From positions 6,769,324 through 6,833,323 of the forward strand of contig JASSKH010000028.1 of assembly GCA_031763025.1 (NCBI GenBank): DNA of 64,000 nt, in the 5' to 3' direction. The position numbers and the translations under genes were made by a program. The notes beneath the pieces were generated by a model, which worked only from the letters and a program-made list of their open reading frames with translations, made no database searches and had not been told where the DNA came from. Each line of letters opens with the position of its first letter. Positions within the stretch are counted from its first letter, which is position 1. Positions 30,681-53,841 of this stretch are shown piece by piece. This DNA comes from Macrocystis pyrifera. Taxonomy: Eukaryota > Sar > Phaeophyceae > Laminariales > Laminariaceae.

Positions 30681-30769
30681 ATGCCGCTTCAGCCAAGACA
30701 TCACAACAGCAGCAACCAAAACAAAAAGAACGGCGGTGGAGGCGGTGGAGACAACGACAGCAGCGGCAT
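30681..30769 (+). CDS. Large gene, exon 1 (start)
   Basis: Encodes MPLQPRHHNSSNQNKKN followed by a GGGGGG run and DNDSSG. The donor is CAT|GTATAT and leaves phase 2. This ATG is preferred because the frame joins exon 2 cleanly and no upstream in-frame exon is visible. Protein N termini rich in Gln/Asn/His and Gly fit the low-complexity style of the rest. Confidence 0.55.

Positions 30770-53841: not shown

What the first reader, a model, noticed from the sequence alone, without database searches (positions are those of the whole stretch)
30681..53841. A 23-kb, 12-exon gene recovered by phase-matched splicing
Short coding islands tens of bases to a few hundred bases long, separated by 0.3-5.4 kb of repeats, join through GT-AG sites with consistent phases. 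The product is a coiled-coil protein of about 1,000 residues with acidic, Gly, His/Asn and Gln-Pro tracts that I cannot place in a family. The exon 11 to 12 joint is telling: reading on meets a TGA at once, while splicing rebuilds LEK-ERENLTREINRL.
Basis: partly seen in the sequence, partly recalled or inferred. Interest (0 to 1): 0.75.

Follow-up and report, generated by a model that had tools for sequence, protein, structure and literature searches.

The report
Spliced kelp coiled-coil protein gene
The scattered coding islands do form one split gene of a giant-kelp-like brown alga, with counterparts in other brown algae; it makes a long, mostly helical protein of unknown job and is otherwise an ordinary gene.

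Summary
The gene is real. Joining the islands through GT-AG sites gives 12 exons over 30681-53735, with introns of 335-5,352 bp. Ten predicted proteins of brown algae are relatives (Undaria, Scytosiphon, Ectocarpus, Pylaiella, one unnamed), and they hit 11 of 12 exons. At 9 of 11 junctions at least two relatives read straight through. All 11 rank first among frame-keeping alternatives within 40 bases, but 1-2 and 6-7 only narrowly.

Corrections: no relative supports exon 1. The Undaria protein matches exon 12 in one frame and 53440-53838 in another, so a one-base shift lies in or beside a CCGCAG-type repeat; assembly error and real mutation cannot be told apart here.

Assembly size and contig number fit published Macrocystis pyrifera. 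No Pfam, PDB-sequence or fold match passed its threshold. Best reading: a taxon-restricted coiled-coil scaffold with a four-cysteine cluster before its long helix; that function is inferred. A good recovery from raw sequence, but an ordinary gene.

The parts
30681..30769 (+). exon 1 as proposed (Met, Asn/Gly-rich); doubtful
   Evidence: opens with ATG and fits in phase, but none of 10 relatives hits it and junction 1-2 leads only 191 to 183
31105..31273 (+). exon 2, start of N-terminal helical module
   Evidence: hit by 3 of 10 relatives; 27/47, 28/56 and 25/50 identical to P0003, P0002, P0004
36626..36730 (+). exon 3, N-terminal helical module
   Evidence: hit by 3 of 10 relatives; junction 2-3 ranks 1 of 12
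38775..38863 (+). exon 4, N-terminal helical module
   Evidence: hit by 1 of 10 relatives, P0003; 13/29, 12/29, 10/29 identical; junction 3-4 ranks 1 of 18
39923..40001 (+). exon 5
   Evidence: 25/26 identical to Undaria P0001; junction 4-5 ranks 1 of 4
44992..45200 (+). exon 6, conserved start (ISALTAEDFPLGRLHNVVIAPK) then low-complexity linker; its 3' end is uncertain
   Evidence: hit by 5 of 10 relatives; junction 5-6 ranks 1 of 25
46293..46509 (+). exon 7, linker and cysteine cluster CDRCACAC; its 5' end is uncertain
   Evidence: hit by 9 of 10 relatives; junction 6-7 leads only 209 to 202
47123..47365 (+). exon 8, start of long coiled coil
   Evidence: 74/81 identical to P0001; junction 7-8 ranks 1 of 32
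48591..48659 (+). exon 9, second long helix
   Evidence: 22/23 identical to P0001; junction 8-9 ranks 1 of 5
50634..50774 (+). exon 10, second long helix
   Evidence: hit by 10 of 10 relatives; 42/47 identical to P0001; junction 9-10 ranks 1 of 12
51303..51868 (+). exon 11, acidic, Ser- and Gly-rich disordered stretch
   Evidence: hit by 1 of 10 relatives, P0001, 75/107 identical; junction 10-11 ranks 1 of 4
52763..53735 (+). exon 12 in the spliced frame (short helix ERENLTREINRLSAELA, then low complexity), stop 53733-53735
   Evidence: 119/217 identical to P0001 over the part compared; junction 11-12 ranks 1 of 9
53315..53665 (+). CCGCAG-type repeat; the one-base frame change lies in it or beside it
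   Evidence: TRF array 53316-53664; P0001 matches 52761-53384 in frame 3 and 53440-53838 in frame 1; no GT at 53310-53657, so no GT-AG intron starts there
53676..53841 (+). Undaria-like C-terminal tail in another frame than exon 12, stop 53839-53841
   Evidence: P0001 residues 652-784 match 53440-53838, E 1.9e-22; frames

Best explanation
A nuclear gene of a kelp (assembly size and contig number fit Macrocystis pyrifera). Eleven introns are removed to give an mRNA for a protein of about 950-1,000 residues. Shown here: one collinear gene, conserved among brown algae, with a helical N-terminal module, a C-x2-C-x-C-x-C cluster followed by an almost unchanging DVWxAYRxLRKRYxALKxQAD stretch and two long helices, a short C-terminal helix, and fast-changing low-complexity linkers. 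Inferred: the long helices pair into a coiled coil, the cysteines bind metal, carry lipid or crosslink, and the whole acts as an intracellular scaffold or tether, with the N-terminal module and the conserved stretch before the coil as binding sites and the disordered acidic tail as a regulatory arm.
For: Relatives in brown algae: (10 proteins in all). Exon hits. Junction continuity. Junction ranking. Helices in the AlphaFold2 model of the Scytosiphon relative P0003 at 2-69, 79-104, 108-132, 302-407, 417-496 and 647-673. Four cysteines identical in 9 of 10 relatives; the tenth, P0010, is a shorter model with a gap there, and the window has them too. Conservation against Undaria is concentrated in exons 5, 8, 9, 10 (25/26, 74/81, 22/23, 42/47) and lower in the linker exons 6, 11, 12 (43/64, 75/107, 119/217).
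Against: No expression or protein data. The structure model is weak overall (mean pLDDT 52.7, pTM 0.27, 564 of 923 residues under 50) and is of P0003, not of the window's protein. A simple 3.5-residue periodicity measure gave no clear coiled-coil signal (0.11-0.33 in the helical stretches). No fold match at E <= 0.001 (best of 20 rows E 3.6), no Pfam match over cut-off (GCN5L1 E 0.04, 14.6 against 23.9 bits). The frame change near the 3' end could mean a damaged allele.
Confidence: 0.72

Rival explanations
1. The gene model is right but this copy is damaged: the one-base change in the repeat is real and replaces the conserved tail by an Ala-rich and hydrophobic end, so the allele is altered or on its way to a pseudogene.
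For: The tail conserved in Undaria is in another frame; the in-frame end is Ala-rich and unlike Undaria.
Against: The other exons are open and well conserved. The change lies in or beside a long repeat, where assembly errors are likely (inference). Only the last part is affected.
Confidence: 0.15
2. The frame change is an error of the assembly and the protein really ends at 53841.
For: Undaria carries the tail in one continuous protein. The stretch is a 6-base repeat array and the assembly is from PacBio reads (passages of the paper).
Against: No reads were available to me. Frames 3 and 1 are both open through the repeat, so sequence alone does not decide.
Confidence: 0.75
3. The true first exon is elsewhere, or translation starts in exon 2.
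For: No relative hits exon 1. P0003 begins MCEAYV, P0004 MEDDMCEA and P0002 with other residues. An in-frame ATG in exon 2 stands at the same place as the start of P0003.
Against: Exon 1 opens with ATG and joins in phase; the starts of the relatives are themselves predictions.
Confidence: 0.5
4. The islands are chance open frames and no gene exists.
For: Long repeat-rich introns and low-complexity ends make such artefacts possible; 62 of 145 tblastn rows lie outside the model, many of them low complexity.
Against: 11 of 12 exons hit by relatives in order, 9 of 11 junctions continuous in at least two of them.
Confidence: 0.01

Closest known systems
Undaria pinnatifida predicted protein Undpi1 HiC_scaffold_10.g04438 (P0001, 786 aa; the species is read from the label by recall)
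   Same: 67% identity over 53% of the query; covers exons 5-12 in order, with the C-terminal tail
   Different: That model starts at exon 5 and holds about 90 residues between the ends of exons 8 and 9 that look like a retained intron (my reading). It lacks the start of exon 11 and the Gln-Pro repeat.
Scytosiphon promiscuus unnamed protein product (P0003, 923 aa)
   Same: N-terminal helical module, cysteine cluster, long helices, C-terminal short helix in the same order
   Different: 56% identity over 36% of the query; linkers and tails differ
Ectocarpus unnamed protein products (P0004-P0009) and Pylaiella littoralis (P0010)
   Same: Cysteine cluster (P0004-P0009) and long helices
   Different: C-terminal half poorly alignable; several are partial or truncated models
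Coiled-coil proteins at large (no family)
   Same: long charged helices
   Different: no Pfam, PDB-sequence or fold match that passes threshold

Membership tests
Brown-algal unnamed coiled-coil group (P0001-P0010) | same order of conserved helical segments in one protein | tested here: met
   exons 2-12 in order; exon 1 not represented
Brown-algal unnamed coiled-coil group (P0001-P0010) | C-x2-C-x-C-x-C cluster then W..YR.LRKRY before the long helix | tested here: met
   identical in 9 of 10 relatives, gap in P0010, present in the window model
Brown-algal unnamed coiled-coil group (P0001-P0010) | kelp C-terminal tail as in Undaria | tested here: inconclusive
   present at the DNA level but in another frame than exon 12
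Any Pfam-A family | match over the curated cut-off | tested here: not met
   only GCN5L1, E 0.04, under cut-off; 5 relatives scanned, best E 0.029 (DUF1548, 2 of 5 members)
Any fold of the PDB | significant fold or profile match | tested here: inconclusive
   0 of 20 Foldseek rows at E <= 0.001 with a weak model; one profile hit at E 0.49
Coiled-coil scaffold | oligomerises and binds partners | not testable with these tools
   needs protein work

The most novel reading that the evidence does not exclude
A brown-algal invention: a scaffold with a metal- or lipid-binding cysteine cluster at the start of a coiled coil, serving a structure special to brown algae, such as the cell-division diaphragm, plasmodesmata or the zoid cytoskeleton.
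Probability: 0.2. Interest if true: 0.5.

Novelty: new member of a known kind. Interest (0 to 1): 0.27.

Why it matters
It shows that a long-intron kelp gene can be read from raw sequence with almost every junction right. Automatic models of relatives look truncated or intron-retaining (Undaria P0001 starts at exon 5), so the model could help to mend annotation across brown algae. The protein itself is a conserved unknown of one lineage, a fair target for localisation work.

Tried and rejected
Pfam on the model and on 5 relatives, PDB sequences, PDB folds, Rfam and tRNA on the window and the phage collection with P0002: nothing that bears on function. The third homologue search used the conserved core of P0002 and found 8 proteins, all already known; it missed P0001, a true relative of suitable length, so these searches are not exhaustive. 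In some searches only about 7,990 candidates were scored, so absence outside brown algae is weak evidence. A search for paralogues in the window's own genome did not complete, so copy number is not tested. An intron inside the exon 12 repeat as the cause of the frame change was considered: no GT occurs at 53310-53657, so only an intron that also removes the conserved residues before 53310 could do it; thought unlikely. Paper search for lineage-specific coiled-coil genes in brown algae found 0 papers; one search gave 8 listings of 45.

Full report
Source. The window lies at G000:C209:6769324-6833323 in an assembly of 537,376,219 bases in 223 contigs. The published giant kelp (Macrocystis pyrifera) assembly has 537 Mb in 35 scaffolds plus 188 contigs, listed as 223 contigs, GC 50.37% (PMC10498591, passages seen). 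I infer that the window is giant kelp; no tool names it.

Rebuilding the model. I read 29000-64000, translated the islands in three frames and joined them. Twelve exons fit: 30681-30769, 31105-31273, 36626-36730, 38775-38863, 39923-40001, 44992-45200, 46293-46509, 47123-47365, 48591-48659, 50634-50774, 51303-51868, 52763-53735. The introns are 335-5,352 bp, all GT...AG; 6 of 11 donors are GTGAG and 2 are GTACGT.

Test by relatives. Searching with the spliced product (residues 1-470 of the 815 typed) gave 5 proteins, an alignment of them gave 10 including those 5, and a search with the core of P0002 gave 8, none new. Names given by sources are Scytosiphon promiscuus, Ectocarpus (several) and Pylaiella littoralis; P0001 carries an Undpi1 label, which I recall as Undaria pinnatifida; P0002 has no species name. 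All named hits are brown algae, but the searches are limited (see Tried and rejected). tblastn of the ten against the window, low-complexity filter off, gave 145 rows, 83 of them in the exons and frames of the model. Eleven of 12 exons are hit; exon 1 is not; exons 4 and 11 are hit by one relative each. The 62 other rows lie outside the model's exons or frames; those listed are mostly low-complexity stretches, some on the other strand, and one is the Undaria tail in frame 1.

Junctions. In the alignment the window's residues meet as in the relatives at junctions 2-3, 3-4, 4-5, 5-6, 7-8, 8-9, 9-10, 10-11 and 11-12, each in at least two relatives. Exceptions to tell: P0004 has a 2-residue gap at 3-4 and a 5-residue insertion at 4-5; P0001 starts at 4-5 and departs after 10-11; at 8-9 the stretch just before the junction is of uneven length among the relatives. 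Among all GT and AG pairs within 40 bases that keep the frame without a stop (4 to 32 per junction), the model's pair scores best against five relatives at 11 of 11 junctions. At 1-2 (191 to 183) and 6-7 (209 to 202) the lead is too small to count.

The 3' end. Exon 12 in its spliced frame stops at 53733-53735. P0001 matches 52761-53384 in frame 3 (E 3.8e-50) and 53440-53838 in frame 1 (E 1.9e-22). Its tail resembles the window's frame-1 tail (GYRVSGFPGEDDDSGGVTGSDMSLSPRSSRR in the window; GYRGSGFPDEDDDGGGVTGSDMSLSPRSSRR in Undaria). A one-base frame change thus lies in or beside the repeat 53316-53664. I cannot say whether it is an assembly error or real; I lean to error, because of the repeat and the conservation.

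What the protein is. No Pfam match passes its cut-off in the window model or in 5 relatives, and PDB sequences give one hit at E 0.49. AlphaFold2 on P0003 with 5 sequences gave mean pLDDT 52.7 and pTM 0.27; the long helices at 302-407 and 417-496 are mostly confident, and 564 of 923 residues are under 50. Foldseek against the PDB gave 20 rows, none at E <= 0.001. A crude 3.5-residue periodicity count did not stand out in the helical stretches, so 'coiled coil' rests on the helices and their charge pattern. Four cysteines (C-x2-C-x-C-x-C) and the W, R, RKRY that follow are identical in 9 of 10 relatives, with a gap in P0010. Conservation against Undaria is concentrated in exons 5 and 8-10 and lower in the linkers. 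From this I infer a scaffold or tether. That is a guess from anatomy.

Verdict. The gene is an ordinary lineage-restricted gene. Orphan genes are a known theme in brown algae (PMC6374913, passages on orphan genes seen; there the term means no orthologue in the other genomes compared, which is stricter than the case here). Paralogues were not tested because the genome search did not complete.

Noticed in passing
window 31596-31689, 36036-36139, 42426-42516, 42559-42652, 45394-45485, 58604-58694; single arms 27441-27460 and 59593-59612: Short element about 90-105 bases between facing arms like GGACCATAGTAAATAGGACC; 14 arm matches with up to 3 mismatches against 0.01 expected, 10 of them in introns of this gene as 5 facing pairs. 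Looks like a small inverted-repeat (MITE-like) element.
   Followed up: partly
window 13668-14267 and 14923-15399: Weak matches to endonuclease/exonuclease (E 0.002) and reverse transcriptase (E 0.0037), both under Pfam's cut-off, with stops between them: a decayed non-LTR retroelement by my reading.
   Followed up: partly
window 61612-61884: Open stretch that by eye resembles a retroelement polymerase fragment, but Pfam gave no match.
   Followed up: partly
window 32607-32732 and 40956-41068: Homopolymer runs of 126 C and about 113 G, both in introns of the gene.
   Followed up: no
window 60057-60551 and 57705-57954: Tandem arrays with units of 178 and 122 bases.
   Followed up: no
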